From positions 806,001 to 870,000 of the forward strand of contig JAJNNQ010000078.1 in NCBI GenBank assembly GCA_027886175.1: a DNA stretch of 64,000 bases, given 5' to 3'. Origin of the DNA: Phylloscopus collybita. Its lineage: Eukaryota; Chordata; Aves; Passeriformes; Phylloscopidae. The number at the start of each line of letters is the position of its first letter. Positions within the stretch are counted from its first letter, which is position 1. The notes beneath the pieces are model-generated. The model was given only the letters and a program-made list of their open reading frames with translations. It did not search any database and was not told the origin of the DNA. The position numbers were made by a program, and so were the translations under genes. Positions 33,632-64,000 of the stretch are shown here, one piece after another.

Positions 33632-34388
33632 TGTTCTGGGTTGTGGAGCCGGGTTTTGTATATTCTATTTACATCTGTTTTGAGGCCTGATGACCCACCT
33701 TGATAGGCCATTGTTACCTTCCCCAGCCTGTGCGGTGCATTTGCATTTCTATACATCTCATGCCCTGGCGGTGGGGGTGGGGGGGAGGGGGGGGGTGGCC
33801 GGGGGTTGGCGGTTCGGCCCTGCTGCAGGAGTGGTTCTGCCCTGCTGCAGGAGTGGTTCGGCCCTGCTGCAGGAGTGGTTCGGCCCTGCTGCAGGAGTGG
33901 TTCGGCCCTGCTGCAGGAGCGGGGGGCTCGGCGCTTCCTTCGCGGCGGTGTGGGAAGAGCTTCTTCGTCTCCTGTGCTCGTGATCCTGTCTCCCTCCTGG
34001 CCGTCCCTGAACCGGTTTCTTCGCAGAATCATCTCTGCTCCAACAGGATCACGTCTGCCACTCCAGAAGCGTTTGGACTGTTTACGTTCGGACTGTTATC
34101 AACATCCTGAATCACAGGGTCAGATTGAAACTCTGACTTTGTCAGGGTTTTCTTCTAAAATTATTGTTTATTTGTTTATTTGTTTGGTTAGTTGGGTGGT
34201 TTTGTTTCCTATCATATTTGTATTGTTAATACCTCCTAGTAAAGAACTGTTATTCCTATTCCCAACATTTTTGCCTGAGAGCCCTTGATTGCAAAATTAT
34301 AATTCGTCGGGGTGCGAGGGGTTGGTATTCTCCATCCTAGGGGAACCTCAGTTTCCCTGGCAGATACCTGTCTTTCCAAACCAAGACA
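33632..34388 (+). mobile_element. ERVL 5' LTR (757 bp)
   Basis: TGTTCTGG ... AAGACA, TG/CA termini. Contains a G-run near 33773-33800 and five 22-bp repeats (GGTTCGGCCCTGCTGCAGGAGT type, 33822-33920). Appears identical to 39501-40257 at a constant offset of 5869. Confidence 0.93.
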
Positions 34389-34393
34389 AATTT

Positions 34394-34412
34394 TGGCGCC
34401 CAAGGGTGGGGC
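34394..34412 (+). other. ERVL primer-binding site
   Basis: TGGCGCCCAAGGGTGGGGC resembles the complement of a lysine tRNA 3' end, a few bases after the LTR. Equivalent sites: 53076-53093 and 54377-54394. Confidence 0.7.
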
Positions 34413-34478
34413 ACGAGGGCATTGAGAGAGAGGAATAACAGTTCTTGGGTATTAGATAAAAGCCCACTGGCCAGAATA

Positions 34479-36239
34479 ATGTGGTCTAGCTTTCCCTGGT
34501 TTGGGTGGCACGTGGTGGTGGCTGTATTTCTGCCATTTGCTACTCCTTATGTTAATATGGGTCCTATGACTAAGGCTACTGTGGCGGGCATTCAGTTTGT
34601 TTTGTGGATTAATAAGGTGAGAAATTCATGGATTTTTAACTTCCTCTGGAAAGCAAGCACATGGATTCATAGCTATCATAGGCTAACTCTGTGCTTCTGG
34701 GGTTACTTTAACAATGGTACCTATTGTAAGGAAATGGCACCGGGGGAAATTTTCTCCCAGCCCTTCACACAGTTTTTTGGGTCCACCCCACCAGTTTTTG
34801 AAGGGTTGAAATCTCTGAGTGCTAATGATATCATACAGTGGCTGGTGTTGCTGGTATGCCTGTTCTGTTTGGCATTCAGAGATAAGGGGAAATTGGCCTG
34901 GGTAAGCACCTTAATAAGTACCCCAGAGAATAAGAATGCAGCCCAAGAGTCCGCTCCTGCCCCACAGCCTGCCTCAGAGATAAACCACCCGGTTTGGGTG
35001 GGGGCTCTGATTAAGGAGATGCAAGAAAAGATGAGCCAGATGCTGAGGGAGTACATCTCCCCAGTTAGTGGGAAATCCTTCCCCTGCCCTGACAAAAGAG
35101 AGCCTGATGGTGCAGCAATGAAACCCACAGAGATTACAACTGCTCAGGTCCCAGCTGAACCACAGGGGCAGTCACAGCCAGCGGCAGTTGCCCCTGTGGA
35201 AACAAAGAAATCTAAGGTGAAAACAGCAAACCCAGACAATAAGAAAGGAGGGCCCTCACAACCTGCAGGGGAATCACATGTTCAGATCATCACCGAGTCC
35301 CTGTCGTATGAAAGTCTCCGTAACCTGCAAAAAGATATCGTACGGCGGGGGCGTGAGGCTTACACAGCCTGGCTACTTCGGGTTTGGGACCTCATGGGTA
35401 CTGGTGTGCAATTGGACAGTGGTGAGGCAAGGAATTTGGGACCCTTGACCCAGGACTCAGGTATAAATCAGGTATTTGTAAGAGAGCCAGGACCCCTTTC
35501 CCTTTGGGAGCGGCTTTTAATGAGTGTGAGAGAGAGATTTATCCACAAAGAAAGAATGCAGGAGCACCACCATAGAATGCGCTGGAAAACTCTGGAGGAA
35601 GGGATCCAACAGCTGAGGGAAGTGGCGGTGCTGGAGGTACTTTTTGGGAGGAGTGGACAGCATGATAATGACCCTGACAAGGTTAAATGCACAGGGCAGA
35701 TGTTGTGGAATCTGGCAAATCTAGGGCCATCTCAGTACACCACCTTTATTGCAACAATTAATGCTGAGGACAATCGAGAGACAGTGGGGTCTGTTGCCAA
35801 TAAGCTTAGGAATTATGAAAGTATGATCAATGGCCCGATGCAGGCTCATATCTCTGCCGTGGTTAAAGAACTCAAAGAAGAGATAAGGGGGGTGAGGGAG
35901 GAGATGAGGACAAACAGTTCCAGTGTGGCACCAGTGCGAGTCACAGGCCCCAGAGTTAGAGCCCAACGACCCCCAGCTCGAGAGAGAGGGTACACCCCAA
36001 GAGCTGACCTGTGGTTTTATCTGCGTGACCATGGGGAAGACATGGGAATGTGGGATGGGAAACCCACTTCTGTCCTGGCAGCACGGGTGCGTGAGCTCAA
36101 GGAGAGGAACAATCACCAAGGGGGATCTACGAAAATGAAAGTAGCCTCAGCCTCCTATAACCAAGCTGCCAATGCTGTGTTGAATCCCCTTGAAGGAACC
36201 TCTAGTATGTATGCTCAGGAAGGGGATAACCAGTGCTAG
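34479..36239 (+). CDS. gag: ERVL gag, intact (586 aa)
   Basis: Structural polyprotein of the ERVL. ATG at 34479 is preferred over an upstream non-ATG opening because the copy at 53184 starts at the same codon. The N-terminal ~150 residues are strongly hydrophobic in places (WHVVVAVFLPFATPYV; IIQWLVLLVCLFCLAF), followed by a Pro/Lys-rich linker, a charged helical region with RERF..EHHHRM, and a basic C-terminus. No CCHC knuckle was seen. The frame ends in TAG at 36237-36239, inside a hairpin; pol continues in the same frame. Confidence 0.85.
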   Translation: MWSSFPWFGWHVVVAVFLPFATPYVNMGPMTKATVAGIQFVLWINKVRNSWIFNFLWKASTWIHSYHRLTLCFWGYFNNGTYCKEMAPGEIFSQPFTQFFGSTPPVFEGLKSLSANDIIQWLVLLVCLFCLAFRDKGKLAWVSTLISTPENKNAAQESAPAPQPASEINHPVWVGALIKEMQEKMSQMLREYISPVSGKSFPCPDKREPDGAAMKPTEITTAQVPAEPQGQSQPAAVAPVETKKSKVKTANPDNKKGGPSQPAGESHVQIITESLSYESLRNLQKDIVRRGREAYTAWLLRVWDLMGTGVQLDSGEARNLGPLTQDSGINQVFVREPGPLSLWERLLMSVRERFIHKERMQEHHHRMRWKTLEEGIQQLREVAVLEVLFGRSGQHDNDPDKVKCTGQMLWNLANLGPSQYTTFIATINAEDNRETVGSVANKLRNYESMINGPMQAHISAVVKELKEEIRGVREEMRTNSSSVAPVRVTGPRVRAQRPPARERGYTPRADLWFYLRDHGEDMGMWDGKPTSVLAARVRELKERNNHQGGSTKMKVASASYNQAANAVLNPLEGTSSMYAQEGDNQC

Positions 36240-36256
36240 AGGGGCCCTGCCTCTAG
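36236..36256 (+). promoter_or_regulatory. Hairpin over the gag stop codon (candidate readthrough element)
   Basis: CTAGAGG-GGCCCTG-CCTCTAG: a perfect 7-bp stem with a 7-nt loop; the TAG of gag is bases 2-4. The same element is kept at 23995-24015 and, with outer pairs changed, at 56497-56514. Confidence 0.6.
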
Positions 36257-39200
36257 CCAGGTAGAGGAAAGGGATAATCGGATCTATTGGACTGTGTGGA
36301 TCCGATGGCCTGGCACATCTGACCCACAAAAATACACGGCTTTGGTTGACACTGGTGCCCAATGTACCCTGATGCCATCAGGGTATGTAGGAACAGAACC
36401 CATTTCTATTTCTGGGGTGACAGGAGGGTCCCAGCAGCTGACTGTAGTGGAAGCCGAAGTGAGTTTAACTGGGAATGGGTGGCAGAAACACCCCATTGTG
36501 ACTGGCCCAGAGGCCCCGTGCATCCTCGGCATAGACTATCTCAGAAATGGATATTTCAAAGACCCAAAGGGATATCGTTGGGCTTTTGGAGTAGCTGCTG
36601 TAGAGACGGAAGAGATCAAACAACTGAATACCTTGCCTGGTCTCTCAGATGACCCTTCTGCTGTGGGACTGCTAAGAGTTGAAGAACAACAGGTACCAAT
36701 TGCCACAGCAACAGTGCACCGTCGGCAATACCGCACTGACAGAGACTCTGTGACCCCGATCCATGAGATGATTCGTAAACTGGAGAGCCAAGGGGTGGTC
36801 AGTAAGGCTCATTCGCCTTTTAACAGCCCCATCTGGCCTGTGCGTAAGCCCAGTGGGGAATGGAGACTGACAGTGGATTACCGGGGTCTGAATGAGGTCA
36901 CACCACCACTGAGCGCTGCTGTGCCAGACATGTTGGAGTTGCAGTATGAGCTGGAGTCCAAGGCAGCAAAGTGGTACGCGACCATTGACATTGCCAATGC
37001 CTTCTTCTCCATTCCTGTGGCAGCAGAGTGCAGACCCCAGTTTGCTTTCACCTGGAGGGGTGTGCAGTACACCTGGAATCGGCTGCCCCAGGGGTGGAAG
37101 CACAGTCCCACCATCTGCCATGGACTGATCCAGGATGCACTGGAAAAGGGTGAGGCTCCGGACCATCTACAGTACATAGATGACATCATTGTGTGGGGGA
37201 ACACGGCAATGGAAGTCTTTGAGAAAGGAGAGAAGATCATCCAAATTCTCCTGGAAGCCGGTTTTGCCATCAAGAAGAGCAAAGTCAAGGGACCTGCCCA
37301 AGAGATCCAGTTCCTGGGAGTGAAGTGGCAAGATGGACGGCGTCAGATTCCCACTGAGGTCATCAATAAGATCACTGCCATGTCCCCACCAACCAACAAG
37401 AAGGAAACACAAGCTTTCCTAGGGGCCATTGGCTTTTGGAGGATGCACATCCCTGAGTACAGTCAGATTGTGAGCCCTCTCTACCTGGTTACCCGCAAGA
37501 AGAACGATTTCCACTGGGGCCCTGAACAGCAACACGCCTTTGCCCAGATCAAGCAGGAGATCGCTCATGCGGTAGCCCTTGGCCCAGTCAGGACGGGACC
37601 AGAGGTAAAGAACGTGCTCTACTCTGCAGCTGGGAGCCATGGTCTGTCCTGGAGCCTGTGGCAGAAGGTGCCAGGTGAGACTCGAGGCCGGCCACTGGGA
37701 TTCTGGAGCCGAAGCTACAGAGGGTCTGAAGCCAACTACACTCCCACAGAGAAGGAGATCTTGGCCGCCTACGAAGGAGTTCAAGCTGCCTCAGAGGTGA
37801 TTGGCACTGAAGCACAACTCCTCCTGGCACCCCGACTACCGGTGCTGGGGTGGATGTTTAAAGGAAAGGTTCCCTCCACCCACCATGCCACCGATGCTAC
37901 ATGGAGCAAATGGATCGCCCTCATCACTCAGCGCGCCCGTATTGGTAACCCGAATCGCCCTGGGATTTTGGAAGTAATCACCAACTGGCCAGAAGCTGAG
38001 AACTTCAGTCTCACTGACGAAGAAGAACAAGTAACCCGGGCTGAAGAAGCTCCACCATACAACCAACTGCCAGCAGAAGAAACACGCTACGCTCTTTTCA
38101 CTGATGGTTCCTGTCGCATCGTAGGGATGAACCGGAAGTGGAAAGCAGCCGTATGGAGCCCCACAAGACAAGTTGCACACGCCACTGAAGGAGAAGGTGG
38201 GTCAAGCCAGCTTGCTGAACTCAAAGCTGTTCAATTGGCCCTGGACATTGCTGAAAGAGAGAAGTGGCCGAAGCTCTACCTCTACACTGATTCGTGGATG
38301 GTGGCTAATGCTCTGTGGGGCTGGCTGGAAAGGTGGAAAAAAGCCAACTGGCAGCGTAGGGGAAAACCAATCTGGGCTGCTGATGAGTGGAAGGACATTG
38401 CCATCAGGGTAGGGAAACTACCTGTGAAAGTCCGTCATGTGGATGCCCATGTCCCCAAGAGTCGGGCTAATGAGGAGCACCGGAACAACGAGCAAGTAGA
38501 TCAAGCTGCGAGGATAAAGGTATCCAAGGTAGACTTGGATTGGCAACACAAGGGAGAGTTGTTCCTAGCTCGGTGGGCCCATGATGCTTCAGGTCATCAG
38601 GGCAGAGATGCCACCTATAAGTGGGCACGAGACCGAGGGGTGGATCTAACCATGAACAGTATTTCACAGGTTATCCACGACTGTGAGACGTGTGCTGCCA
38701 TCAAGCAGGCCAAGCGGGTGAAGCCCCTCTGGTACGGTGGACGGTGGTCCAAGTACAAGTATGGGGAGGCCTGGCAGATTGATTACATCACACTGCCCCA
38801 AACCCGCCAAGGCAAGCGCTACGTGCTGACCATGGTGGAAGCCACCACTGGGTGGCTGGAGACCTATCCTGTGCCTCATGCCACCGCCCGGAACACCATC
38901 CTGGGCCTGGAAAAACAAGTCCTGTGGAGACATGGCACCCCTGAGAGAATTGAGTCAGACAACGGGACTCATTTCAAGAACAGCCTCATAAACACCTGGG
39001 CTAAGGAACACGGCATTGAATGGATATATCACATCCCTTATCATGCACCAGCTGCCGGGAAAGTTGAACGGTGCAATGGACTGCTTAAGACCACCCTGAA
39101 AGCACTTGGCGGGGGGACCTTCAGAAATTGGGAAGTGAACTTAGCAAAGGCCACCTGGATGGTCAACACCCGAGGGTCTATTAATCGAGCTGGTCCTGCC

Positions 39201-39422
39201 CAGTCTACCCCTTTGCACACAGTGGATGGAGACAAAGTCCCTGTAGTACATATGAGAGGTATCTTAGGAAAGACTGTTTGGGTAAACCCCACCTTGGGCA
39301 AAGGTGAACCCACCCGTGGGATTGTTTTTGCTCAAGGACCTGGTAACACTTGGTGGGTAATGCAGAAAGATGGGAAAACCAGTTGTGTACCACAGGAAAA
39401 CCTAATCCTAAGTGAGAACTGA
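36240..39422 (+). CDS. pol: ERVL pol, intact (protease, RT, RNase H, integrase)
   Basis: Open without interruption from the codon after the gag TAG to TGA at 39420-39422. Order: protease (VDTGAQC, ~36347), RT with QYIDDIIVW (~37171), RNase H (FTDGSC ~38098; YTDSW ~38284), integrase with HHCC zinc region (HDASGH ... CETC, 38580-38695), then the three acidic core residues (WQIDY, ESDNGTH, KVERCNG). All catalytic motifs are present. There is no own ATG at the start, so translation would need readthrough or another mechanism. No env follows, as usual for ERVL. Confidence 0.92.
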   Translation, partial: RGPASSQVEERDNRIYWTVWIRWPGTSDPQKYTALVDTGAQCTLMPSGYVGTEPISISGVTGGSQQLTVVEAEVSLTGNGWQKHPIVTGPEAPCILGIDYLRNGYFKDPKGYRWAFGVAAVETEEIKQLNTLPGLSDDPSAVGLLRVEEQQVPIATATVHRRQYRTDRDSVTPIHEMIRKLESQGVVSKAHSPFNSPIWPVRKPSGEWRLTVDYRGLNEVTPPLSAAVPDMLELQYELESKAAKWYATIDIANAFFSIPVAAECRPQFAFTWRGVQYTWNRLPQGWKHSPTICHGLIQDALEKGEAPDHLQYIDDIIVWGNTAMEVFEKGEKIIQILLEAGFAIKKSKVKGPAQEIQFLGVKWQDGRRQIPTEVINKITAMSPPTNKKETQAFLGAIGFWRMHIPEYSQIVSPLYLVTRKKNDFHWGPEQQHAFAQIKQEIAHAVALGPVRTGPEVKNVLYSAAGSHGLSWSLWQKVPGETRGRPLGFWSRSYRGSEANYTPTEKEILAAYEGVQAASEVIGTEAQLLLAPRLPVLGWMFKGKVPSTHHATDATWSKWIALITQRARIGNPNRPGILEVITNWPEAENFSLTDEEEQVTRAEEAPPYNQLPAEETRYALFTDGSCRIVGMNRKWKAAVWSPTRQVAHATEGEGGSSQLAELKAVQLALDIAEREKWPKLYLYTDSWMVANALWGWLERWKKANWQRRGKPIWAADEWKDIAIRVGKLPVKVRHVDAHVPKSRANEEHRNNEQVDQAARIKVSKVDLDWQHKGELFLARWAHDASGHQGRDATYKWARDRGVDLTMNSISQVIHDCETCAAIKQAKRVKPLWYGGRWSKYKYGEAWQIDYITLPQTRQGKRYVLTMVEATTGWLETYPVPHATARNTILGLEKQVLWRHGTPERIESDNGTHFKNSLINTWAKEHGIEWIYHIPYHAPAAGKVERCNGLLKTTLKALGGGTFRNWEVNLAKATWMVNTRGSINRAGPAQSTPLHTVDGDKVPVVHMRGILGKTVWVNPTLGKGEPTRGIVFAQGPGNTWWVMQKDGKTSCVPQENLILSEN

Positions 39423-39484
39423 GTGTGAGGGTTCATTCTGTATAGTGGAGTTTATTAATTTAGGTATGATACAGATGGTAATAG

Positions 39485-39500
39485 AATAAGGGGTGGATAA
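39485..39500 (+). other. ERVL polypurine-tract candidate
   Basis: AATAAGGGGTGGATAA directly before the 3' LTR. Purine-rich but imperfect. Confidence 0.45.
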
Positions 39501-40257
39501 TGTTCTGGGTTGTGGAGCCGGGTTTTGTATATTCTATTTACATCTGTTTTGAGGCCTGATGACCCACCTTGATAGGCCATTGTTACCTTCCCCAGCCTGT
39601 GCGGTGCATTTGCATTTCTATACATCTCATGCCCTGGCGGTGGGGGTGGGGGGGAGGGGGGGGGTGGCCGGGGGTTGGCGGTTCGGCCCTGCTGCAGGAG
39701 TGGTTCTGCCCTGCTGCAGGAGTGGTTCGGCCCTGCTGCAGGAGTGGTTCGGCCCTGCTGCAGGAGTGGTTCGGCCCTGCTGCAGGAGCGGGGGGCTCGG
39801 CGCTTCCTTCGCGGCGGTGTGGGAAGAGCTTCTTCGTCTCCTGTGCTCGTGATCCTGTCTCCCTCCTGGCCGTCCCTGAACCGGTTTCTTCGCAGAATCA
39901 TCTCTGCTCCAACAGGATCACGTCTGCCACTCCAGAAGCGTTTGGACTGTTTACGTTCGGACTGTTATCAACATCCTGAATCACAGGGTCAGATTGAAAC
40001 TCTGACTTTGTCAGGGTTTTCTTCTAAAATTATTGTTTATTTGTTTATTTGTTTGGTTAGTTGGGTGGTTTTGTTTCCTATCATATTTGTATTGTTAATA
40101 CCTCCTAGTAAAGAACTGTTATTCCTATTCCCAACATTTTTGCCTGAGAGCCCTTGATTGCAAAATTATAATTCGTCGGGGTGCGAGGGGTTGGTATTCT
40201 CCATCCTAGGGGAACCTCAGTTTCCCTGGCAGATACCTGTCTTTCCAAACCAAGACA
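39501..40257 (+). mobile_element. ERVL 3' LTR (757 bp)
   Basis: Same length and, as far as read, the same sequence as the 5' LTR, including the five 22-bp repeats and the G-run. It is followed by the CCCAT duplication. Confidence 0.93.
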
Positions 40258-45353: not shown

Positions 45354-45967
45354 TGTGAAAAACGACGTTTCACCTTTTGATATTAATTTATAAGTTTAGT
45401 AAAAATAAAATAAAATAGAATAAAAATAGACAATAAAGAAGAAAAAAAAAAAAAAAACAAAAAAAAAAAAAAAAAAAAACAAAAAAAAAAAAAAAAAAAA
45501 AAAACAAAAAAAAAGCTCTTTTCGGCCGAGGTGCTGATTCCAACAACATCAGCACACCGTCTTTTTTCAGATCCTTTGTTTTTAAAGACTTCTGTGTTAC
45601 ATATTCGAATGAGCTAATACATGATTCAAATATTCATTTTTGGTTTCAAAACTTCCCTTAATTATACAGTTTTTCTATGTGGCCTTGCTAAGTCTAGATA
45701 GAGGTAGTAAATCTTTCTTCTTCAACAAGGCTCAGTTGTTCCTTATCTTTAGGAATTCCAGATGGCCCTCCTGTCTTCTATTTCTTTAAGGAATTAAAAA
45801 AACAACAATCCCATCTCTACTTTGTTACAATCTAAGAATATTTATCTATCACAATTTTAAAAATTCTATTAATAAAAAAACCATGCAGTATAACTTTCCC
45901 ATGTTATACATAAAGCAATCTGCTTGTTATATGCAAAAAGCCAACTCCAAAATATGCATTTATAACA
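45354..45967 (-). mobile_element. Solo LTR in class I gag
   Basis: Same LTR family (TGTGAAAAACGACG ... TTATAACA) flanked by AATCC at 45349-45353 and 45968-45972. Longer than its relatives because of an A-rich expansion. Confidence 0.85.
45438..45515. repeat. Poly-A / (A)nC simple repeat
   Basis: Runs of A split by single C inside the solo LTR; absent from the LTRs at 33503 and 46992. Confidence 0.9.
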
Positions 45968-45972
45968 AATCC

Positions 45973-49720: not shown

Positions 49721-49886
49721 TTTAGAAGAAATTTTATCTGAGTCTTGATGTTTGGGGAGTTTTTGTTCTGTCTCTTGATGTTTGGAGGACTTTGGGGCTT
49801 TGTATTTAGGAGGAACCCCCAGCCTAAGGCGCTCTCCTCTTGTTTTTTCCCCAAACTGGGATTTGTCATTCCCAAGGAGTGTCTGG

Positions 49887-51047: not shown

Positions 51048-51367
51048 GGGAAGCCCTGGGAGTGCCCTGAGAGTAGGAAGAGCTTCGTGTGCTGCTCAAG
51101 CTCCATCCCCCGTGGGAGGATCGGCATTGGATGATCCCCAGTGACCCCTGTTGGGCAGAGCCCTGGTGATCCCTGTTGGGAAGACACCTGGCTGGGGGGC
51201 TCCACATCTTCCTGTCTCCTTGTGGGCATCTGGAGGAATGCAGGGGCAGGAACATCCATCGAGACACAGACTGACACTGGGAATTCCTTAGGGAGAGTGG
51301 ATTTGTTGACTTTCAACCCCAGAAAATCTTTTGTGTTCAATCCTTTCTTCTGCAGATTCAAGGAATA

Positions 51368-51420
51368 CTGGATGGTCTTGGAGGTCTTTTCCAACCTCAG
51401 GGATTCCACAACTTTGATTT
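51368..51420 (+). mobile_element. CR1 LINE 3'-tail remnant (duplicate)
   Basis: GGTCTTGGAGGTCTTTTCCA plus ACCTCAGGGATTCCA; the same position in duplicon B as 4226-4275 in A, and closer to the CR1 consensus. Confidence 0.55.
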
Positions 51421-52406
51421 CCTATTGCCCGAAGGCGTCTTCTGCAGCCAAATGGTGATAAACAGGAGCCAAGATCAAGGTTTTGGAGACAGTGGGGTGG
51501 TAATCTGTCCAAAAAAGGTTCTTCCTTCCCACCCAAGCAGGTGGATCCTCAGCTGGCACAGACACAGAAATCCTTTTCTTTTGGCCTTGATTTGCTTTTC
51601 ATTTCATTTCATTCCCTTTAACAAAATCCGACACTGGGGTAAAAATGAGGAAATTGAACTAAGACCTGGGTGAGGACATGGGGAGACACAGACATGGTGA
51701 GTGACATGGGGACACATGGACATGGATGGGGATGTGGCCATTCATGGGGACACAGGGGGACAAGGGCTCAGATGGAGATGTGGGGGACAATGACAGGGAT
51801 GGAAACCTGGTGGGGAGACAGCCATGGGTGAGGCCATGGTGGGACATGGCCAGTGACATGTGGGGACATGGCCATGGCCAGTGCCACGGGGGGAACTTGC
51901 AGGGGCTGTGGGCGATGCTGGGTGTGAGGGAGTTGAGGGTTCCTGGGAGGGACTTGGGGCTTGCTGAGGGCTTTGGGGACCCCAGGCCGAGCGGCTCCAG
52001 CAGCGCTGGGAGACCCTGGTGGAGGTTCTGGGGCAGCTGCTCAAGGAGCCCCTGACCTGGAGCCCCAGCCAGGCATTGGGCTCCTGGAAGGGAATGAACG
52101 TCCTTGTCCCCAGGAGGGAAATCCCAGCAGCCCCAGGGTGTTTGGGGCAGCTGAGAGGCCACAAGAGGGAGGGGAAAGCCAGACGGAGCTCTCCCTCTCC
52201 AAAACTGCCCCCCAAAAATCCCAAACTCATGGATTCTTTGCAGAAAAAAAGCTGCCAGGAGGTGCCTGAATTAAGGGAAAGGAGGGAGGGAGATCCCCAG
52301 ACTGAGCAGGAGGAGATTGGAACCCCCAGACCCGAGCATGGGTTTCTTAGGTTATGGAAGGAAAAAATGTGTATTGTATTTCATCTGTTGAAAGCAGTTG
52401 GGGAGA

Positions 52407-53070
52407 TGTTTTTCTTTATCTCTTGTAACTCCAGGGGGGAGGGGGGCTGATGCTTTCTGATAATGGGCCAGCTGCTCAAACCAGGTGGGGCAGTGTTTCT
52501 TATCTATTTCATCACCTCTCCACCCTCTGGGGGATATCTATTGCTCATGGGCCATGAAGGCTCACCAATGACAGGACACATTCCATCATCCCACTGTGAG
52601 ATGCTGCACCCAGTGTTGGAGGAGCCAACCATCCCTACCTGGATAAAAACTGAGACCTAGGAACACGAGGGATCTGGTTCCACTGGATCCCCAGATGAAG
52701 ACTGGACACTTCTCACCATCACTGGACCCTTTTCTCTCAGGATCATCTCTACCCCAACAGCACCACATCTGCCTCTCCCGGAGGACTTACTGTGGATTGC
52801 TTCCAACAGCCTGACCAACACAGTGTCAGGTTGTATTTCTGACTCAGTCAGGGTTTCTAGCATTTTTCTTTGTTTGCTTGGTTTTTTTGTACTACTGCAT
52901 TTGTATTGTAAATATTTCTAGTAATGAACTGTTATTCTTTTTGCCAAATCTTTGTCTGAAAGCCCCAAATTGCAAAATTATACTTTGGAGCGGGTGAGGC
53001 GTTTACATTCTCCATTCCAAGGGAAACTGCAGCTTTCCCTGGCAGATTCCTGTCTTTCCAACCCAAGACA
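52407..53070 (+). mobile_element. ERVL LTR (second element)
   Basis: TGTTTTTCTT ... CCAAGACA, about 664 bp, with the shared 3' end (AAATTGCAAAATTATA, TTTCCCTGGCAGATTCCTGT) of the 33632 LTR and a PBS after it (53076-53093, TGGCGCCCAATGTAGGGC). Confidence 0.8.
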
Positions 53071-53183
53071 GCTTTTGGCGCCCAATGTAGGGCACAAGGG
53101 CATTGAGAGAAAAAGGAATAACAGTTCTGGAGCGACTTAAGTTCTTGTGTACTGGATATAGAAACCTTCTTAAGTAGAATCAT

Positions 53184-53692
53184 GTGGTCTCACCCTGGTT
53201 TGGGTGGCATGTGGTTGTGGCTGTATTTCTCCCATTTGCAGGCCCTTATCTAAACATGGGCCCTATAACTAAGGCTACTGTGGCTGTTATCCAGTTTCCT
53301 TTATGGGTTAATAAGGTGAGGAATTCATGGATCTTTAACTTCCTCTGGAAGGCAGGCACATGGGTTCCGAGGTATCACACACTAACTGTGTGTTTTTGGG
53401 GTTACTTTAACAGTGGTATCTACTGTGAGGAAATGACACTGGGGGAGATTTTTTCCCAACCCTTCACCCAGCTCTTTGGGTCCCACCAGTTTTTGAAGGG
53501 TTCAAGTCTCCTCTGAATGCCAATGATATCATACAGTGGCTGATGTTGCTGATAGGCCTGTTCTATTTAGCATCCAGAGATAAGGGGAGATTGACCTGGG
53601 TAACCACCCTGACACCTACCCCACAAAATAGAGATGGTGCCCCAGAGCCTGACCCTGCCCCACAGCCTGCCTCAGAGATAAACCAACCAGAT
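53184..53692 (+). pseudogene. ERVL gag N-terminal fragment
   Basis: Starts at an ATG equivalent to 34479 and keeps the hydrophobic N-terminus (WHVVVAVFLPFAGPYLNMG). A deletion shifts the frame near 53490. Sequence homology continues to 53692 and then stops at the next element. Confidence 0.85.
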
Positions 53693-54365
53693 TGCTGAAG
53701 GAGTTAGGTGACTGTTTTAGGGTGACTATGATTTTTTACAATTTTTAATTGTCTGTTTTGTTTGTGTTATATATTAAGTTTTGTACTTTTAAAATTAGTT
53801 TTGGGAGCAAAGGAGAAAAAAGAAGTAGCACACAGTTTGTTTTGAGAAAACTGTTTGACTTTTAAATGTTTTTGTTGTGGTGGTTTGTTTGATATACGGA
53901 GAGTAATAGGACAGAGATTTTTTTGTGGTTTTAGTTAGTTTTAGCTAGCTGAAGTGAAAAAGGGTTTTGTACTTCTTTTTTTCGGTTTTTTTTTGAGATT
54001 GTTTGAATTTGTTCTAGACGGAAAAATTTAGAAGAGCAGTGAGGGCTTGCACTTGCAGCCCACTGGGGCCTGGAGTTTTAGAGGGAGTGGGACTGGTGAG
54101 AGACTGAGTGAGCTGAGCTGTATTTACAGCAAAGATTTTTTTAGTTCATGTTTTTTTTTTTCAGAGTAGCCAAAAGTTTTATTGTTTTATATTATTCATT
54201 CTTTGTGCTTGTTGGCATCTTGTTTGTTAAATAAATAGTTTTTCTACTTTTCTCTGAAGAAGTTCTTTATTTTTTGGACTGGCTGAGAGAAGGAGCCGTT
54301 TAAGATTGCTTTCCAGAAGAACCCCCTTTGGAGGTTTCCTCCCAAATTTGCCCTAAACCAAGACA
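53693..54365 (+). mobile_element. 5' LTR of hypermutated ERVL (U3 start missing)
   Basis: Aligns with 61300-61975 (GGGAGCAAAGG, TATTATTCATTCTTTGTGCTTG, GTTAAATAAATAG with AATAAA) but lacks about 100 bp at the U3 end and carries many C-to-T and G-to-A differences. Ends AGACA at 54365. Confidence 0.75.
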
Positions 54366-54376
54366 TATATTGGTAT

Positions 54377-54394
54377 TGGCACCCAACATGGGGC
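54377..54394 (+). other. PBS of hypermutated ERVL
   Basis: TGGCACCCAACATGGGGC: the lysine-type PBS with two G-to-A changes at CG positions. Confidence 0.65.
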
Positions 54395-54396
54395 TC

Positions 54397-56496
54397 AAAA
54401 AATATATTAATGACATTTTAGTTATACTTTATATAAAAATAAAATAGTAGCCATGTGGCTGCTTAAATCCCTAATGTCTCTTAAAATAAAATCCTTTCTG
54501 TGTTTTTGTTCCCTAAGCTTTTTTTAAAATTTTAATACCTTTCTAGTCCCTAAATTTGTTTTCTTATCCAAAAATAGCTCCAATGTTTTCCCTAACACAT
54601 AACTTTTACACTAAAAATACACAAATTAAAATATCTATTCTTCTAAGCTCAGTAATTATAATTTATAAAAGGCTTATACAAGTACTGGAGTTGGTGCCAA
54701 GTATATTTAGTTGTAACTTCTTCGTCCTACCCTGCATCCTAGTTCCAGTAACAAATTTTAAAAACTTGTTAATTATTGCACGCGGTTTGTTAAAAAAAGT
54801 TAAAAATAAAGCTTTTTAGTCTTTTCTTTCCTTCTTCTCTTTTAAATCAATTACATCACTTTTAAAAACGTTCAGTATCCCCCAAATATTAAAAACCCCA
54901 CTCTCCTAATATTTAATCTAGTGAGCTTCCTCTATACAGTTTACAGCTTGTCTAAAATAAAGTCTGAGCTTTCCTGAAAGGCTGATAAAACTGCTAACCT
55001 AAAAGTAAACCCAAAAATAAACCCAAGTGTAAAAAATCCCGAATAGTGTAAAAAATAAAAAAACATAAACTGAACCTTAAAAAAATTTTCTGATCCCCCA
55101 ACTTAAAAATTTTCATGTAAACAAATTCAAAACCTAAATAAAATTATGTCTAAAAAAAATCCACCATAATAATTAAAAAAAAGAATCATTGCAATAAACT
55201 AAGCCTTAACATAAGCTTATTGCACACTGCTAAATACTGTAAAACAGCAAATAAAAACAGGGGGGCAGGGAGATAAATCAGCAACGACCCCAGTCACTCA
55301 AACTGCAACCAACACCCCAACTACTCAAACAACAGCTAAACCAAACAATAAACCTAAATCAACAGCTATACCAAATAAAAAACTTAAATCAGCAGTTAAA
55401 CTCAATAATAAACCCAAAACAGCAGCTAAGCCAGACAGGGAGCCTAAAACACCAACAGTTGCCACAGCAAAAAAGCGCACACACAAAACTCATCAACCAG
55501 GAAACAATAATCCAAACAAAACCCCCTCAATACCTCCCAACACCCAATCACAAACCCAACTGACCAACAGCAGATCACAAACCCAACCAACCAGCAAAAG
55601 ACCAAAAGCTGCTGTTAAATCCTTTTCCCTAAAAAAACCTTGGAAACCTAAAAAAAAATTAAACTCAACAACCTAATAAATCTATAATTAATTAATTAAA
55701 CCGTCTTTAAAATGTTGCAAGCAAAGCTACAACTCTAAACAACACTGAAGGAAAGCATTTAAAATCCCTATCACAAAATCCAATTATCAACCAAAAAATA
55801 TAAAAAACCCCCTAACCCTTGCAGTCTCTGGGAACAGGTCCTAGGAGATGTAGCACAAAAATATCTGCATATAAACAATCTCTATATACAGCAAACCCAA
55901 TAAAAAACCATAAAACAAAAAATTCAACGCTTAAAAAAAAGGGCAGTAACAAAAATTGTCTTCTCAAATAACCTAAACACTAAAAACCCAAACTTAATAC
56001 AATATACACTCGTGATGTGGCAAAAACTTATACAACTTAAACCACAAAAATACTCTTCTGCTTTAGTGATAATAAAGCAAAATAACACAAAACCCCCTGT
56101 ACTAAATACAGCAAAAAACCTCCGAACATATACACATACCATGCAAGATCCAACACATACAAAAATTGCAGCTCTAAAAACACTGATGTAAACATTAAAA
56201 AACAAAATTAAAAAACCCCACAACAACAAAAAACATTTTCTCCAAATCTCTTCAGTACAAATCAGAAGTTCTAACACCAAACACAAATATTCCCCTGATA
56301 GGGAGAGAAGGAACACCCTACAAACTAAACTATAGTCCTTCCTACGTAATTGTAAAAAAACATGAAAAAATAAAAAACCTACTACTGCTCTAACACAACA
56401 AGTATCTAAATTAAAAGCCAGCAAAACTCAGAGAGGAAGTTCCACCAGAAAAAACCCAACAAACTTGTTACCCAAAAAACCCCAAATAAACAAGCT
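54397..56496 (+). pseudogene. gag region of hypermutated ERVL
   Basis: No ORF; A-rich, G-poor DNA between the PBS and the conserved gag/pol hairpin. Lysine/asparagine/stop codons replace Gly, Glu, Asp and Trp codons. Confidence 0.7.
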
Positions 56497-56607
56497 TAGA
56501 GGGGCCCTGCCTCTACCCAAATAAAAGGTAAAAAAAGTGTTTTTTAAACTGCATAAGTTCATTAGCCTAGCATTAAAACCACAAAAATATAAAACCTTAG
56601 TTAACAC

Positions 56608-57357
56608 TGTTATAAATATGATGCCCAATGATCCAAAAAAACCACAAACAAAATTTAAATGTAACAGCAATTTTAATTGAGTATATTAATGAATACAAAA
56701 TTGGATTATAATCACATAATAATTGAATAGTAAATCATTGGTTCGGTTAATAATGCATAAGCAAAGATACAAACCACGGGGTACGGAGCAGGACCATGGG
56801 ATCCCGCCTCACGTACAAACGAGATAACCCCGAGCTGGCCCCTTTATAGTGTGAGCCAATACGTGCTACCACCCATCCCCTCCTATTTTCGATATGTAAG
56901 TTTTACATCACTGTTTTCATCACCACCTCTATCACGCATGCCCCGTCATCTCTTTTCGGGGGTCTCGCCACCTTTTAGGGGGTCGTGTGATGAAGGCTCA
57001 TCCTCTTCATCACGTGTCCTTTGAATAACCTTTTTTACTGCTCATGCGTATTAGGCTACCTTCTTGGTTACACATGCGTATTAAGCTTGTATTATGTGAG
57101 TAAATACCAAGCTTGAACATTTCCACCATAAATCTCAAATAATTAGCAGGTTCCTTGGAGCTTCCCCAACTTTTCCCTTTCTATGAGTAAATTTAGCTAC
57201 CCTTATCTAGGTTTCTTCCTGTATTTCATGAACATCTGCAGGAGAAGGGGGGGACCCCCTCCCTTCCCTCTTTGGCAGTACTTGTTAGTTCTTTATGATT
57301 CTAAAGTATTGATTACTGTTTCAATTTTATCAGCACGAATCATACCTATTTATCACA
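56608..57357 (+). mobile_element. Solo LTR inserted in the hypermutated pol
   Basis: TGTTATAAATATG ... TTTATCACA, 750 bp, with 4-bp duplications ACAC at 56604-56607 and 57358-57361. Its start resembles the class I LTR start (TGTTATAAATGC). GG and GA are normal, so it arrived after the editing. CCCTTTATAG near 56850 is TATA-like. Confidence 0.8.
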
Positions 57358-57979
57358 ACACTAGTACACAGTGCACATTAATCCCATCAATATATATATA
57401 TATTTAAAAATCTATTTCTCTTGCTAGTGTAACAAAAAACCCACAAATTTTACTTTAGTGAAAGCTAATGTAAACCTGACTAAAAATAAGTTAAAAAACC
57501 ACCCTATTGTAACCAACCCAAAAGCCCCATGCATTTTAAACATAAACTTCCTCCAAAATAAATCTTTCAAAAACCCAAAAAAATTCAAATAAGCCTTCCA
57601 AATAACAGCTATAAAAACCAAAAAAGTTAGGCAATTAAACACCTTGCCTAAATTATCAAAAACCCATCTGCAATAAAACATCTAAAAAAGCCCAAACAAG
57701 TACCAATTGCCACTTCAAGAGTACATCGTCAACAGTGCAAAGCAACTCAAAATACCTTAATTCCCATCCACAAAATAATCCCTGAGCTAAAAAACCAAAA
57801 AATAGTCAGCAAAACCCATTCAGCCTTCAACAACCCCATTTAACCTAGATGCAAATCGAAAAAAAAATAAAAATTAACTGTAAACTCTCATAGCTTAAAT
57901 AAAGTAACTCCACCGCTGAGCGCTGCTGTACCAAATACACGGAAACTCCAGGACGAGCTGAAGTCCAACACAACAAAGT

Positions 57980-58667
57980 CTTCAGTTTGGCTGGTTTCCC
58001 GAGATTTCAGTGGTTAAGTGTCCTTTGCCCTCTCAAAGCCAGATGCAGGAACAACAGAGAGTCTTGAGATGTTCTTTTTTCAAGGTTTGTCTCGTTGTTT
58101 ATTATTTCTTACCTTTTCCCTTTTTCCCTGTGCCTGACCAAGGTCTGTCCAGCTTGAGCACCAGGCAAAGCCTCCGCCCCTGACAGAGGCTCGTCATCTC
58201 TTATACAGATTATTATGTATCAATTATTTACAATTTCACACCAATATCTACATTCTATACTGAACAGGTTATCTCTACACTGACCCAATCACCTTGAACT
58301 ACTTTGTGCCACTGTCACAGCAGAAGATGGAGATGAAGAAGAAGAAGAACCCAGGGCACCGCCCAGAATTCCCCATCTTGTCCCCATTCACCCCTATTCT
58401 AGAAACCCCAATTGTGACAAACTACACTATTCTTTATCACTCTTTTGTGTGATAAAGAATAGTGTAAGGCTTGTAATTCCTCTCTCAGTGTTGGAAGTTT
58501 TTCCCATGGACTAAAGTCAAAGCCAGTGCCCTCCTGGGCTCTGTGCCAGGGTCTACAACCCTCCTGTACAGATCCCAGACCCCCCTGTACAGGTCTCAAA
58601 CCTTGTTGTTCAGGTTCCTGTCTGTCCAGGGTATCCAGAGGAATGCCATGGATTCCCACAACAAAGT
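57980..58667 (-). mobile_element. Unclassified insertion in the hypermutated pol
   Basis: 677 bp between 11-bp repeats CACAACAAAGT (57969-57979, 58657-58667). Minus strand carries a short frame with LREELQALHYSL, then TGTCACAATTGGGG and, further on, AATAATAAACAACG. It looks like the 3' end plus LTR of another ERV, but no TG/CA pair fits both ends. Not hypermutated. Confidence 0.55.
58424..58465. repeat. Perfect 17-bp inverted repeat (hairpin)
   Basis: ACACTATTCTTTATCAC and GTGATAAAGAATAGTGT around an 8-nt loop, inside the 57980-58667 insertion. Confidence 0.95.
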
Positions 58668-61205
58668 AGCGCCACTGTGAACATCGCTGAGGCATTTTTC
58701 TCCATTACTTGAACAGCAAAATACAAACCTCAATTGACCTTCACCTGGAGGGGCGTACAGGGCACCTCAAACCAACTGCCCCAAAAGTAAAAACACAGTC
58801 CCACCATCTGCCATAAACTAATTCAGCCTGCACTAAGAAAGGGTGAGGCTCCAAAACATCTGCAATACATTAATAACATCAGTGTATAAAAAAATTGCCT
58901 CTAAAATATTTTAAAAAATCATCCAAATTCTCCTAAAAACCAATTTCACTAAAAAAACCCCCAAAGTTAAAAAACCTGCTCAAAAAATCCAATTCCTAAA
59001 AATAAAATAAAAAAACCAGCATCAAATTCCCACCAATATCATCAACAAAACCACAACCATGTGTCCAGCAACCAACAAAAAAACCCCACAAACTTTCCTA
59101 AACACCATAGGCTTTTGGAGAACACATATTCCTAAGTACAGCCAAATTGGAAACCCTCTCTACCTGGTCACCTGCAAGAAAAGCACTTTCCAGTAAAACC
59201 CTAAACAACTGCACACCTTTACCCAAATCAAACAAAAAATTATTCATACAGCAACCCTTAACCCAGTCACAATTAAACCAAATATAAAAACGTACTCTAT
59301 GCCAGAATGCCAAAAAATTAGCCCAAAATCAGCCCAAAAATCAGCTCAAAGTCACCCCCAAAATCACCCTAAAAATCAGCCAAAAATCAGCCAAAAATCA
59401 GCCAGGAGCCATAGTCTGTCCTAAAACCTTTAACAAAAAGTACCTAAGAAAACTCAAAACCAACCACTAAAATTCTAAAATCAAAGCTACCAAAAATCCA
59501 ATACCAACTACACTCCAACAACAACAACAAAAATTTAACAGCCTATAAAAAAGTCCAAACTACCTCAAAAACAATAAACACTAAAACACAACTGCTCCTG
59601 GCACCCCGAATACCAGTGCTAAAATAAATGTTTAAAACAAAGGTTCCCGCTACCCACCACGCCACCAATAGCACATAAAATAAGGAAATTGCTCTTATCA
59701 CACAACACGCCCATATTTAAAAACTAAATCACCCTAAAATTTTAAAAATAATCACAAACTAGCCTAAAAGTAAGAACTTCAGTCTCATTAATAAAAAAAC
59801 CCAAAAACAAGTAACACGTACTAAAAAAGCTCCACCATACAACCAATTAAAAAACCACATTATAATCTTTTTACAAATAATTCTTATCGCATTACAAAAA
59901 TAAAACAAAAATAAAAACCAACCGTATAAAACCCCACACAACAAATCGCACAAGCTGCTAAAAAAAATAAATCAAGCCAACTTCCTAAACTTAAAACCGT
60001 TCAATTAACCCTAAGCATTGCCAAAAGAAAAAGTAACCAAAACTCTACCTCTACACTAATTCATAAATAATAACCAAAGCTCTATAAAAATAACTAAAAA
60101 AATAACAAACCTAAAAAAATAAAAAACCTAATTAACAACATAAAAAACCCAATCTAAACTTCTAAAAAGTGAAAAACCATCACTGCCAAAATAAAAAAAT
60201 TACCTGTAAAAATCCTCCATGTAAATACCCATATCCCCAAAAATCAAACTAATAAAAACCACCAAAACAACAAATAAATAAATCAAGCACAAAAATAAAA
60301 ACATTATTTACAACACAAAAAAAAAGTTATTCCTAACTCAATTAGGTCATAATGACTCAAGTCATCAAAACAAAAACATCACCTCTAAGTAAACACAAAC
60401 CAAAAAACGAATTTTACCATAAACAATATTTCACAAATCATCCATAACTTTAAAACGTGTACTGCCATCAAACAAGCCAAACAAATAAAGCCCCTATAAT
60501 ATAACAAACAATAATCCAAATATAAATATTAAAAAGCCTAGCAAATTAATGACATCACACTGCCCCAAACCCACCAAGCAAGCACTAGATGCTAACCATA
60601 ATAAAAGGCACCACTAAATAACTAAAAACCTATCCTATACCTCACGCCACTGCCCAGAACACCATCCTAAACCTTCAAAAACAAATTCTCTGAAAGTACA
60701 ATACCCCTAAAAAAATTAAATCAAACAATAAAACTCATTTCCAAAATAACCTTACCAACACCTAAACTAAAAAACATAGCATTAAGTAAGTCTACCATAT
60801 CCCCTACCATACACCAACTGCAAACAAAATAAAAAAATACAACAAACTATTAAAAAAACCCTTAAAACATGAAACAAAAAATCTTTCAAAAATTAAAAAC
60901 AGCACTTAACAAAACCCACCTAATTAACACCCAGATTTCCACCAACAAAACAAACCATACCCAATCTAAACTCCTACCAACAGTAAACAAAAATAAAATC
61001 CCAATAATACATATAAAAAGTTGGTTAAAAAAAAGTGTAAATCAAATCTACCTCAAATACAAACAACCCCATCCGTAAAATTATTTTTACTCAAAAACCA
61101 AGTTACACATAGTAAATAATACAAAAAAATAAAACTCACAATATATACGTCAAAAAAATCGAATTGTTAAATAAAATCTATAAGTAAATATCATTATTTG
61201 CTAAA

Positions 61206-61975
61206 TGTTACTGCCATTTTCTGTCTATAGCTGTATGCTGTATATATATGCGTGTATAAGGTATGTGTGTGTAGAGTTAGAATTTATTTAGTTCTGGTAG
61301 TAAGTTGACGATATGGGGATAAGGGGTAGAATGGTGTGGGGTGACTTCATGATGCTTGTATCCCCAATCCTCTGCTCTGGCTGTGCTGGATATTCAGTTC
61401 TGTACCTTTCAAATGGTTCTGGGAGCAAAGGGGGAGAAAGAAGCAGCAGCAGTTTGTGTTGAGAACAAACTGCCTGACTGCCACACGTCCTTGCTGCGGC
61501 GTTGGTCTGAGGCACGGACAGTGCTGGGACAGAGATCTCCTGTGCTCTGAGTCAGTTTGAGCTGCCTGAGGCAGAGAAGTTCCCTGGAATTTTTTTTTTT
61601 TCTTTTTCTTGGGACTGTTTAAATCTGCTCTGGACTGACAAACCCAGAGGAGCAGCGAGGGCTGGCACCTGCAGCCACCAGGGCCTGGAGCTCTGGAGGG
61701 AGCGGGGCTGGTGAGAGATGAGTGAGCTGAGCTGCACCCAGGGCAAGGACTGCCTCAGTTTGCCATCTCCCTTGAGCGGCCAGAGGTTTTATTGTTGCAT
61801 ATTATTCATTCTTTGTGCTTGTGGGCATCTTGTTTGTTAAATAAATAGTTTTTTCCACTTTTCTCCGAGGAGGTTCTTTTTTCCAAGACTGGCTTGGGGG
61901 GAGGGGCCATTTGGGTTTGCTTTCCAGAGGAACCCCATTGGAGGTTTCCTCCCAAATTTGCTCTGAACCAGGACA
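61206..61975 (+). mobile_element. 3' LTR of the hypermutated ERVL element
   Basis: TGTTACTGCC ... CAGGACA, about 770 bp, AATAAA near 61845. Same family as 53693-54365 but with normal C and G content. It follows edited pol without a break. Confidence 0.75.
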
Positions 61976-62006: not shown

Positions 62007-62646
62007 TGTAGCCACTCCACCTCTTGCCTCGGCTGTCTGTGCCCTTGCCTTCTCCGGCTAGCCCTGGCGTTGGTTACGGGCAGTTGGTACAGCTCGGCAG
62101 GCTGACCAACCGAGCCGATCTGGTGGGCTCTTTACAGCCCAGCTTACGCGTTGGAAGTTGTGATGATGGTGAGGAGAAAAAGGAGGACTCTGCTGAGGAG
62201 TGGCTACTGAAGTTTATTGAGGGTCCCAGGGAAGCAACCTCACTCCAGGGAAACTGCCTCAGCAGGGTGAGGATTTTCCTGGGCTGGCTACTTTTACCAG
62301 GGGGAGGAGTGGAGGGAAGGATCAGGGAAGAGACCAACCAGGGAGGGCCAGGGAGTGGCCGTGGGGATGAGAGACTCCTCCAGGAGCCAATCCCTGGGGG
62401 GAAGGAGGGACTTCCTCAGATCCTGGCCTACCACATGACGCTTTCCCAGGAACTTTCTAGACCCAGAGAGGCCTCAATAAGATGGACAGGTCCTTGGGGG
62501 TAGGGAGCAGGAGATTGACATTTAACTGAAACTGGGTAAACAACTGTGGTATGAAACAAATGGGGGTTAACTGGGGGTACATGGAATGAACCAAACAAAC
62601 AGTACAAACAAACATTTAACAGAGAAAAAACAAACACACCGCTACA
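62007..62646 (-). mobile_element. Class II ERV LTR
   Basis: Minus orientation, TGTAGCGG ... GGCTACA (inverted ends TGTAGC/GCTACA), AATAAA at 62213-62218. It is the 3' LTR, because a polypurine tract and coding sequence lie on its upstream (right) side. Confidence 0.8.
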
Positions 62647-62662
62647 TCTTCCCCTTTTCTTT
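62647..62662 (-). other. Polypurine tract of class II ERV
   Basis: AAAGAAAAGGGGAAGA on the minus strand, abutting the LTR. Confidence 0.85.
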
Positions 62663-62749
62663 TCTTTAAAATGAGGTAGATTGTGTTTGTGGTGCAAAAT
62701 ACTCTGACAAGGGGTAAGTCTCCCCAAGCCAAGTTTGATGTGTTGACCA

Positions 62750-63303
62750 CATATAATACCCTTCTTCTTGAGGTCCGGTGACTTTCTCAAGGTCTTCTTC
62801 TTCTTCAGGAGCACTAGGCACAATGACATCATCTCTTCAGTGTTACCTTTCTTGAGCTGCTCTTCCACGAGCTCACTGAGCATCTTAAATTTCTGTTTAG
62901 AAAGTGACCACTGTTCCACCCAAACTGGTACATCTGTCTTCCAATTCAGTTTTTGGGTGGGGTGTTCCTCAGTGACCGCCGCCCAGAAATCCTGTGAGGG
63001 GTCTGGGATGTCAGTGGTGGCCTGCCACTGGGCCATCAGGTCTCTCCCTAGCAAGGGCTCTGTATAGTCCAAAACGAATGGGCAGAGGTTCGCCAATTGC
63101 CCATTCGGCCCCTGAATTTGTACAATGCTCTGTGATCGTTTTGTCAGTGGCAAGCCCCCTGCTCCGTGGATGTGACCAGCCACGTTTTGCAAGGCCCAAT
63201 GCAACAGCCAATCCTGTGTGGGTATGATCATCACATATGGCTCCGTGTCCAGGAGACCCTTGATGTTCAGTGTCTCCCCACCCACCCGAACCTCACAGTT
63301 CAC
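62750..63303 (-). pseudogene. Class II ERV protease and RT start, rest of pol deleted
   Basis: Minus frame: protease whose DTG reads DTE (GLLDTEPYVM), then PLLGRDLMAQWQA, then the RT N-terminus (QKLNWKTDVPVWVEQWSLSK). A few codons into RT the frame passes straight to the polypurine tract, so most of pol and env are deleted. An alpha/beta-like class is inferred from these motifs. Confidence 0.8.
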
Positions 63304-63313
63304 CTTAAGTTTT

Positions 63314-64000
63314 TGTCTTGGTTTAGAAAGACAGGTATCTGCCAGGGAAACTGGGGTTCCCCTAGGATGGAGAATACCAACCCCTCACACCCCAACGAAT
63401 TATAATTTTGCAATCAAGGGCTCTCAGGCAAAGATGTTGGGGATAGGAATAACAGTTCTTTACTACGAAATATTAACAATACAAATGTGATAGGAAACAA
63501 AACCACCCAACCAAACAAACAAATAAACAAATAAACAATAATTTTGGAAGAAAACCCTGACAGAGTCAGAGCCTCAATCTGACCCTGTGATTCAGGATGT
63601 TGAAACCAGTCCAAAGTAAAGTCCTTCTGAAGTGGCAGACGTGATTCTGTTGGAGCAGAGATGATTCTGTGAAAAAGCAGGTCCAGGAGTGGTAAGGAGG
63701 GGGCTCTGGGACTGGTGAGATGGAGTCTGGTGAGACGAAATCCGGTCTTCCTCCCGACAGAAAATCGGGTGGAAAAACTGGCTGCTCTCCTGTCTTGTCA
63801 GGGAGGGATGAAGAGGACAATCCTCCTGAGAAGCCTTGGCTCTGGATTAGGGTAGAGAAGGGAAGCAGGACGGCTAGCACAGGAGGCGAAGAAATTCTTG
63901 CCACACCGCAGGGGAGGAAACGCAGAGCACTGAGCTCTTGCAGCAGCGCAGCACCGGCGCGGCCGAGCCTTCCCCACCCCCCACCGCCAGGGCATGAGAT
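63314..64000 (-). mobile_element. ERVL LTR, inverted, incomplete at window end
   Basis: Reverse complement of the 33632-34388 LTR family, starting TGTCTTGGTTTAGAAAGACA and reaching the GC-rich U3 at 64000. Inserted in or joined to the class II ERV just upstream of its protease. Whether a provirus or solo LTR cannot be told. Confidence 0.85.

What the first reader, a model, noticed from the sequence alone, without database searches (positions are those of the whole stretch)
54366..61205. An ERVL provirus almost emptied of G on one strand: deaminase hypermutation
The interior of this copy aligns with the intact ERVL at 34.4-39.4 kb, but GG and GA are nearly always AA while C is kept. Remaining G are mostly before C or T. 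In 59881-59940 there are 2 G and 15 C. On the minus strand the targets are therefore CC and TC, as expected of an APOBEC-family enzyme acting on retroviral minus-strand cDNA. Birds lack APOBEC3; hyperediting of bird LTR elements has been reported and attributed to APOBEC1-type enzymes. The extent here (nearly 7 kb, close to saturation) is unusual and marks a strong antiviral event that still yielded a germline insertion.
Basis: partly seen in the sequence, partly recalled or inferred. Interest (0 to 1): 0.9.

Follow-up and report, generated by a model that had tools for sequence, protein, structure and literature searches.

The report
Bird retrovirus fossil shredded by deaminase
An old retrovirus copy in a bird genome has lost most of its G letters, and one end has instead lost its C letters, in the pattern expected if a host antiviral enzyme attacked the viral DNA while it was being copied; the kind of event is known in songbirds, but this copy is unusually extreme and shows which DNA strand was exposed where.

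Summary
Against the intact relative at 33.6-40.3 kb, 779 of 1091 aligned G are A, with 41 A-to-G and 130 C-to-T in 3859 columns. In pol, 425 of 462 GG/GA and 195 of 316 GC/GT sites are edited, about equally at the three codon positions; 38 of 45 aligned Trp codons became stops. This is the geometry of reverse transcription: minus-strand cDNA edited inside, plus-strand strong-stop DNA edited in the 5' U3. Best explanation: one APOBEC-family attack during a single reverse transcription, then germline integration. Such editing of songbird ERVs is known; the density here (about 200 G-to-A per kb, against a relative, not the parent) exceeds every entry of one published table. The enzyme is unidentified, the host genome could not be searched, no target-site duplication was found, and 35 G-to-A and 16 G-to-T in the 5' LTR are unexplained.

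The parts
53713..54365 (+). 5' LTR of the edited provirus; deaminated on the plus strand (C-to-T) in its U3 part, not in its last 90 bp
   Evidence: C-to-T 69 of 139 against LTR3, T-to-C 3; 64 of 103 in 53710-54179, 5 of 15 in 54180-54275, 0 of 21 in 54276-54365
54377..54394 (+). primer binding site, tRNA-Lys-like (type recalled), GG runs kept; G loss starts just after it
   Evidence: read
54395..56607 (+). leader and gag-like region, G-depleted, with clusters of retained GG/GA (55260, 55434, 55830, 56297, 56431, 56499 and others)
   Evidence: alignable only from about 55736
56608..57355 (.). later insertion, probably a solo LTR (TG...CA ends, flanks TAACAC and CAACAC); unedited
   Evidence: ends read; G/(G+A) 0.37
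57356..57979 (+). pol, edited (GR 83 of 86 in 57358-57904), then the start of a spared patch at 57905
57980..58656 (.). later insertion between two identical 11-bp repeats that both carry A where the reference has G; unedited
   Evidence: G/(G+A) 0.42
58657..58860 (+). rest of the spared patch in pol (GR 21 of 36 over aligned sites of 57905-58860 against 404 of 426 in the rest of pol)
   Evidence: Fisher p 3e-9; patch limits chosen from the data
58861..61180 (+). pol to its end, near-saturated G-to-A; G is 136 of 2319 bases (5.9%)
61200..61334 (+). stretch with normal G ending in the polypurine tract; poor in C, as is the same place in the intact relative
61335..61975 (+). 3' LTR, no sign of editing
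33632..40257 (+). reference: intact neighbour provirus (identical 757-bp LTRs, CCCAT on both sides, open gag-like and pol frames)

Best explanation
An ERVL-like element was reverse transcribed once in a bird germ cell or its precursor with an APOBEC-family deaminase present. While the minus-strand cDNA was single-stranded between the primer site and the 3' polypurine tract, C was deaminated to U, mostly after C or T, and plus-strand synthesis fixed this as G-to-A (pattern shown; enzyme inferred). [quoted passage not shown] step inferred). The 3' LTR stayed unedited, probably because it was quickly double-stranded (inferred). The DNA integrated, was inherited and did not retrotranspose again to give this copy (inferred from the unequal LTRs). 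Two other elements inserted later.
For: Directional G-to-A 779 to 41 with mostly balanced controls. Near-equal editing at codon positions (73, 75, 75%), while non-G sites in pol still show selection (10, 9, 30% changed): the parent was a working element, hit once and blindly. Strand switch at the 5' LTR, also visible without alignment: C/(C+T) 0.09-0.16 with G/(G+A) 0.47-0.51 in 53700-53999, against 0.27-0.40 and 0.11-0.31 in 54400-54999. Both strands share a C preference by the 5' base: interior CC 0.90, TC 0.94, GC 0.66, AC 0.57; 5' LTR to 54275 CC 0.85, TC 0.69, GC 0.55, AC 0.33. Rising gradient along pol (logit slope 0.51 per kb, p 6.5e-6; without the spared patch 0.33, p 0.009). Primer site and polypurine tract keep their G. 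The repeat around the second insertion carries A for G in both copies, so editing is older.
Against: No target-site duplication (GTGAC against CTCCC), and the right flank does not continue the ERVL fragment of the left flank, so the locus is rearranged or the LTRs could come from two elements. The 5' LTR also has 35 G-to-A against 5 A-to-G, GG-biased, and 16 G-to-T against 4 T-to-G, which the simple scheme does not predict. PMC12548423 argues that late in reverse transcription the strand displaced is the minus strand of the 3' LTR, which would put extra G-to-A there, not seen here; [quoted passage not shown] The spared 61200-61334 stretch is longer than a polypurine tract. The 5' LTR is polarised by the 3' LTR and by composition, not by an outgroup. 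The gag reference is far (54% identity).
Confidence: 0.85

Rival explanations
1. Both LTRs were alike at integration, and the 3' LTR with about 130 bp upstream was later replaced by gene conversion from an unedited copy; the C-to-T in U3 could then come from APOBEC1 editing of the genomic RNA, which would reach both LTRs.
For: The sharp edge near 61200 and the missing target-site duplication. A passage of PMC2564838 says that plus-strand C-to-T in retroviruses has rarely been reported, from APOBEC1 acting on genomic RNA.
Against: The C-to-T fades towards the primer site, as strong-stop exposure predicts, and its 5'-base order (C, T over G, A) is that of the interior cDNA editing. No donor copy was seen in the window.
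Confidence: 0.12
2. The family is naturally A-rich and G-poor, and evolved so by slow mutation bias.
For: Some retroviruses are A-rich (recalled).
Against: 45 in-frame stops in 1005 aligned pol codons and near-equal change at codon positions; normal LTR3 and flanks.
Confidence: 0.02
3. Ordinary decay: CpG methylation loss and age after integration.
For: LTRs differ at 19 of 313 A/T sites, so the copy is not young.
Against: Decay hits both strands alike; here the bias is strand-specific and switches strand. Non-CpG C-to-T in the 5' LTR up to 54275 is 62 of 110.
Confidence: 0.01
4. AID rather than an APOBEC1-like enzyme did the editing.
For: Birds have AID (recalled); AID is held to mutate MMTV proviruses in mice (PMC7760323 passages).
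Against: AID prefers WRC (same passages), which is GY on the plus strand; GY is the less edited class, 195 of 316 against 425 of 462.
Confidence: 0.1

Closest known systems
Ultra-edited zebra finch LTR elements TguERVL1_I-int and TguLTRK1_1 (Knisbacher and Levanon 2016, not held; figures seen in Table 3 of PMC12548423, which cites it)
   Same: Songbird ERVs, an ERVL included, with clustered G-to-A put down to APOBEC enzymes
   Different: 71.5 and 57.2 G-to-A per kb there; about 202 per kb here (191 after subtracting A-to-G), though measured against a relative, not the parent: G-to-A is 55% of mismatches here and 80-83% there
Endogenous MMTV Mtv21 (PMC12548423, sections 5 and 6 read whole, other passages by search)
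   Same: Near-saturated germline provirus; LTRs that differ because of editing
   Different: Mtv21 has 120.8 G-to-A per kb and 10.8% G, and its LTR difference is G-to-A in the 3' LTR; here it is C-to-T in the 5' LTR and the 3' LTR looks clean. G is 8.2% in the interior here but 12.0% with both LTRs
HIV-1 edited by APOBEC3G: minus-strand gradients and C-to-T in the 5' U3 (Yu et al. 2004 for the latter, recalled and not held; gradients in PMC4488724 passages)
   Same: Gradient rising towards the polypurine tract, and plus-strand C-to-T in the 5' U3
   Different: Plus-strand changes are rare in HIV (recalled); here 64 of 103 aligned C in 53710-54179 became T. Host, virus and enzyme differ

Membership tests
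APOBEC-hypermutated provirus | G-to-A far above A-to-G and C-to-T | tested here: met
   779 against 41 and 130 in 3859 columns
APOBEC-hypermutated provirus | dinucleotide context bias (GG or GA) | tested here: met
   540 of 666 against 239 of 425, p 2e-18
APOBEC-hypermutated provirus | editing confined to the element | tested here: met
   flanks 0.48 and 0.54, 3' LTR 0.60, later insertions 0.37 and 0.42 for G/(G+A)
APOBEC-hypermutated provirus | gradient towards the 3' polypurine tract, tract spared | tested here: met
   slope p 6.5e-6 in pol, 0.009 without the spared patch; tract keeps its G
APOBEC-hypermutated provirus | not shared by descent with other copies | not testable with these tools
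   The genome search gave no answer in 12 tries; unequal LTRs argue for a single round
AID editing | WRC hotspot preference | tested here: not met
   GY less edited than GR
APOBEC1-type editing in birds | enzyme present in this host and able to act on cDNA | not testable with these tools
ERVL (class III) | RT, RNase H and integrase; no env | tested here: met
   intact neighbour: Pfam RVT_1, RNase_H, rve; pol ends 79 bp before the LTR
ERVL (class III) | 5-bp target-site duplication | tested here: inconclusive
   CCCAT in the intact neighbour; none at the edited copy
ERVL (class III) | dUTPase near the end of pol, as in mammalian ERVL (recalled) | tested here: not met
   no dUTPase family in the intact pol; hence called ERVL-like

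The most novel reading that the evidence does not exclude
The copy is a germline recording of one reverse transcription seen through a deaminase: minus strand exposed from primer site to polypurine tract, plus-strand strong-stop exposed at U3, and an internal spared patch in pol (57905-58860) that marks a second plus-strand start, as the central polypurine tract does in HIV. It would be an endogenous retrovirus with heavy plus-strand 5'-U3 editing, evidence that a bird deaminase works on both strands to near saturation.
Probability: 0.45. Interest if true: 0.75.

Novelty: new member of a known kind. Interest (0 to 1): 0.6.

Why it matters
APOBEC3 genes are specific to eutherian mammals (abstract of PMC5399452, seen in the listing), yet this bird provirus is edited more densely than the entries of a published table that includes HIV-1 and mouse proviruses. 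Its strand map could let the order of reverse transcription in an old element, and the motif of an unnamed bird deaminase, be read from one fossil. LTR-based dating would mislead here: the LTRs were probably unequal from the start.

Tried and rejected
Polypurine footprints: retained GG/GA sites of pol cluster (36 unedited pairs within 30 bp against 15.7 expected, 0 of 2000 shuffles), and over gag and pol they lie in longer purine runs (mean 6.5 for 53 retained against 4.6 for 510 edited, p 3e-5). In pol alone the run effect is marginal (5.2 against 4.5, p 0.049) and local purine or G content has no effect (p 0.99 and 0.34). Neighbouring sites are not independent, so protection by RNA primers stays a suggestion.

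Relatives elsewhere: an LTR pattern in viral contigs gave 0 matches; an RNase H piece gave 3 stretches, none confirmed as a relative. An empty site could not be shown: no target-site duplication, and the right flank aligns with the intact interior no better than chance allows (26 and 31 on the two strands, five shuffles 23-27). Slow A-rich evolution and CpG decay were rejected on codon and strand data.

Papers: Yu 2004, Suspene 2006 and Knisbacher and Levanon 2016 are not held; the first is recalled for its content, the other two seen only as cited by others. I saw no report of 5'-U3 C-to-T in an ERV in the listings or in the passages read, but no search was aimed at exactly that in ERVs, so this is weak.
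Full report
What is there. The reference is a complete neighbour at 33632-40257 with identical 757-bp LTRs, CCCAT on both sides and open gag-like and pol frames. Its pol has reverse transcriptase, RNase H and integrase families and no dUTPase. The host is a bird: of the 120 listed homologs (299 found) of an RNase H piece of this pol, the 115 with an organism name are all birds, barn swallow up to 95% identical.

Test of the observation. Three pieces were aligned with a scoring that treats all transitions alike; five shuffled or reversed controls score 34 to 47 against 209 to 2444. Of 1091 G, 779 are A; the reverse is 41 of 1061, C-to-T 130 of 936, T-to-C 115 of 771. Five other pairs of related stretches in the window are balanced, except one with 14 G-to-A to 7 A-to-G and 20 C-to-T to 5 T-to-C. 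Among sites where two relatives agree, G-to-A is 344 of 536 and A-to-G 22 of 514. By the next base, GA is edited 0.83, GG 0.79, GC 0.59 and GT 0.53, so even disfavoured sites are more than half edited.

One blind hit on a working element. In pol, G-to-A is 251 of 344, 161 of 214 and 218 of 292 at codon positions 1, 2 and 3, while other sites differ by 10, 9 and 30%. The lineage was under protein selection until the event, which ignored codons. Of 45 aligned Trp codons of pol, 38 read as stops; 45 stops lie in 1005 aligned codons.

The strand switch. LTR5 against LTR3 shows C-to-T 69 of 139 and T-to-C 3: 64 of 103 in 53710-54179, 5 of 15 in 54180-54275 and 0 of 21 in 54276-54365; the split at 54275 has p 1.6e-7, but the cut point was chosen from the data. 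U3, R and U5 limits were not determined; U3 here means the first part of the LTR. Composition alone shows the same switch. Pyrimidine-C is edited 43 of 56 and purine-C 26 of 53, the same direction as on the minus strand of the interior. The 3' LTR, the tract before it, the flanks and both later insertions look normal in G; the tract region is C-poor (0.18), but so is the same place in the intact relative (0.10). In reverse transcription, plus-strand strong-stop DNA becomes the plus strand of the 5' LTR, and its U3 end is copied last (textbook knowledge, recalled), which fits. A retrotransposed copy of an edited parent would carry equal LTRs, so this is most simply the product of one round.

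Gradient and spared patches. GG/GA editing in pol is 83 of 86 in 57358-57904, drops to 21 of 36 in 57905-58860, and ends at 87 of 90 in 60601-61180, with lesser dips at 59101-59300 (22 of 28) and 59390-59650 (42 of 47). The overall rise has slope 0.51 per kb (p 6.5e-6), 0.33 (p 0.009) without the patch and 0.49 (p 0.013) after it. In gag it is 0.77-0.88, on a poor alignment. The sawtooth resembles the twin gradients of HIV described in PMC4488724 (passages). An internal plus-strand start in pol is therefore possible, not shown.

Order of events. Insertion 1 has TG...CA ends and near-matching 6-bp flanks, as a solo LTR would. Insertion 2 is bordered by an identical 11-bp repeat in which both copies carry A where the reference has G. 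Both are unedited. LTR A/T sites differ at 19 of 313, so the event is old; no date is claimed.

What does not fit. There is no target-site duplication. LTR5 also has 35 G-to-A to 5 A-to-G, most at GG (23 of 57) and relatively frequent in the last 90 bp (9 of 28), so its minus strand was also exposed at some point. It has 16 G-to-T to 4 T-to-G, 11 of them after T, where 67 of 189 G lie after T (p 0.008). The spared 61200-61334 stretch is longer than a primer tract. [quoted passage not shown] neither predicts the pattern here, whereas the C-to-T in the HIV 5' U3 that I recall from Yu et al. 2004 does.

Comparison. Table 3 of PMC12548423 lists 120.8 G-to-A per kb for mouse Mtv21, 72.8 for an HIV-1 isolate and 71.5 for zebra finch TguERVL1. 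Here it is 202 per kb, or 191 less A-to-G, helped by a G-rich parent and a distant reference: G-to-A is 55% of all mismatches, against 82.6% in Mtv21. G is 437 of 5337 (8.2%) in the interior and 12.0% with LTRs, against 10.8% in Mtv21. The same paper reports 3'-LTR-specific G-to-A and says such LTR differences had not been reported before; the pattern here is the other LTR and the other strand. PMC6497032 (passage) relates that birds, oscine passerines above all, have the strongest such signals; PMC6523648 (passage) says it is especially strong in zebra finch and much weaker in medium ground finch. The kind is thus known; the extent and the strand map are what is new.

Noticed in passing
window 33632-40257: A complete ERVL-like provirus with identical LTRs, CCCAT on both sides and open gag-like (605 aa) and pol (1042 aa) frames; recent by its LTRs.
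   Followed up: partly
window 43501-44500 and 45501-46500: AT-rich stretches with G well below C (skew to -0.52) but no A excess, unlike the edited provirus. Parts of 45.5-46 kb match 40.3 and 47.2 kb.
   Followed up: partly
window 53713-54213: 16 G-to-T differences of LTR5 from LTR3, 11 after T; possibly slippage in T runs made by editing.
   Followed up: partly
window 59309-59403: Short tandem array of an 11- to 12-bp unit inside the edited pol, where the relative has no counterpart (alignment gaps).
   Followed up: no
window 52716-53704 and 62431-63701: Fragments of other ERVs beside the edited copy: LTR end with gag start on +, and an LTR piece with a protease-like frame on -.
   Followed up: partly
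window 3164-3901 and 49782-51044: Two C2H2 zinc-finger arrays (7 and 11 Pfam zf-C2H2 stretches) about 46 kb apart; 50457-52415 and 3314-5267 are 84% alike.
   Followed up: no
window 25687-27937 and 29801-32049: A 2.25-kb direct duplication at 94.6% identity.
   Followed up: no
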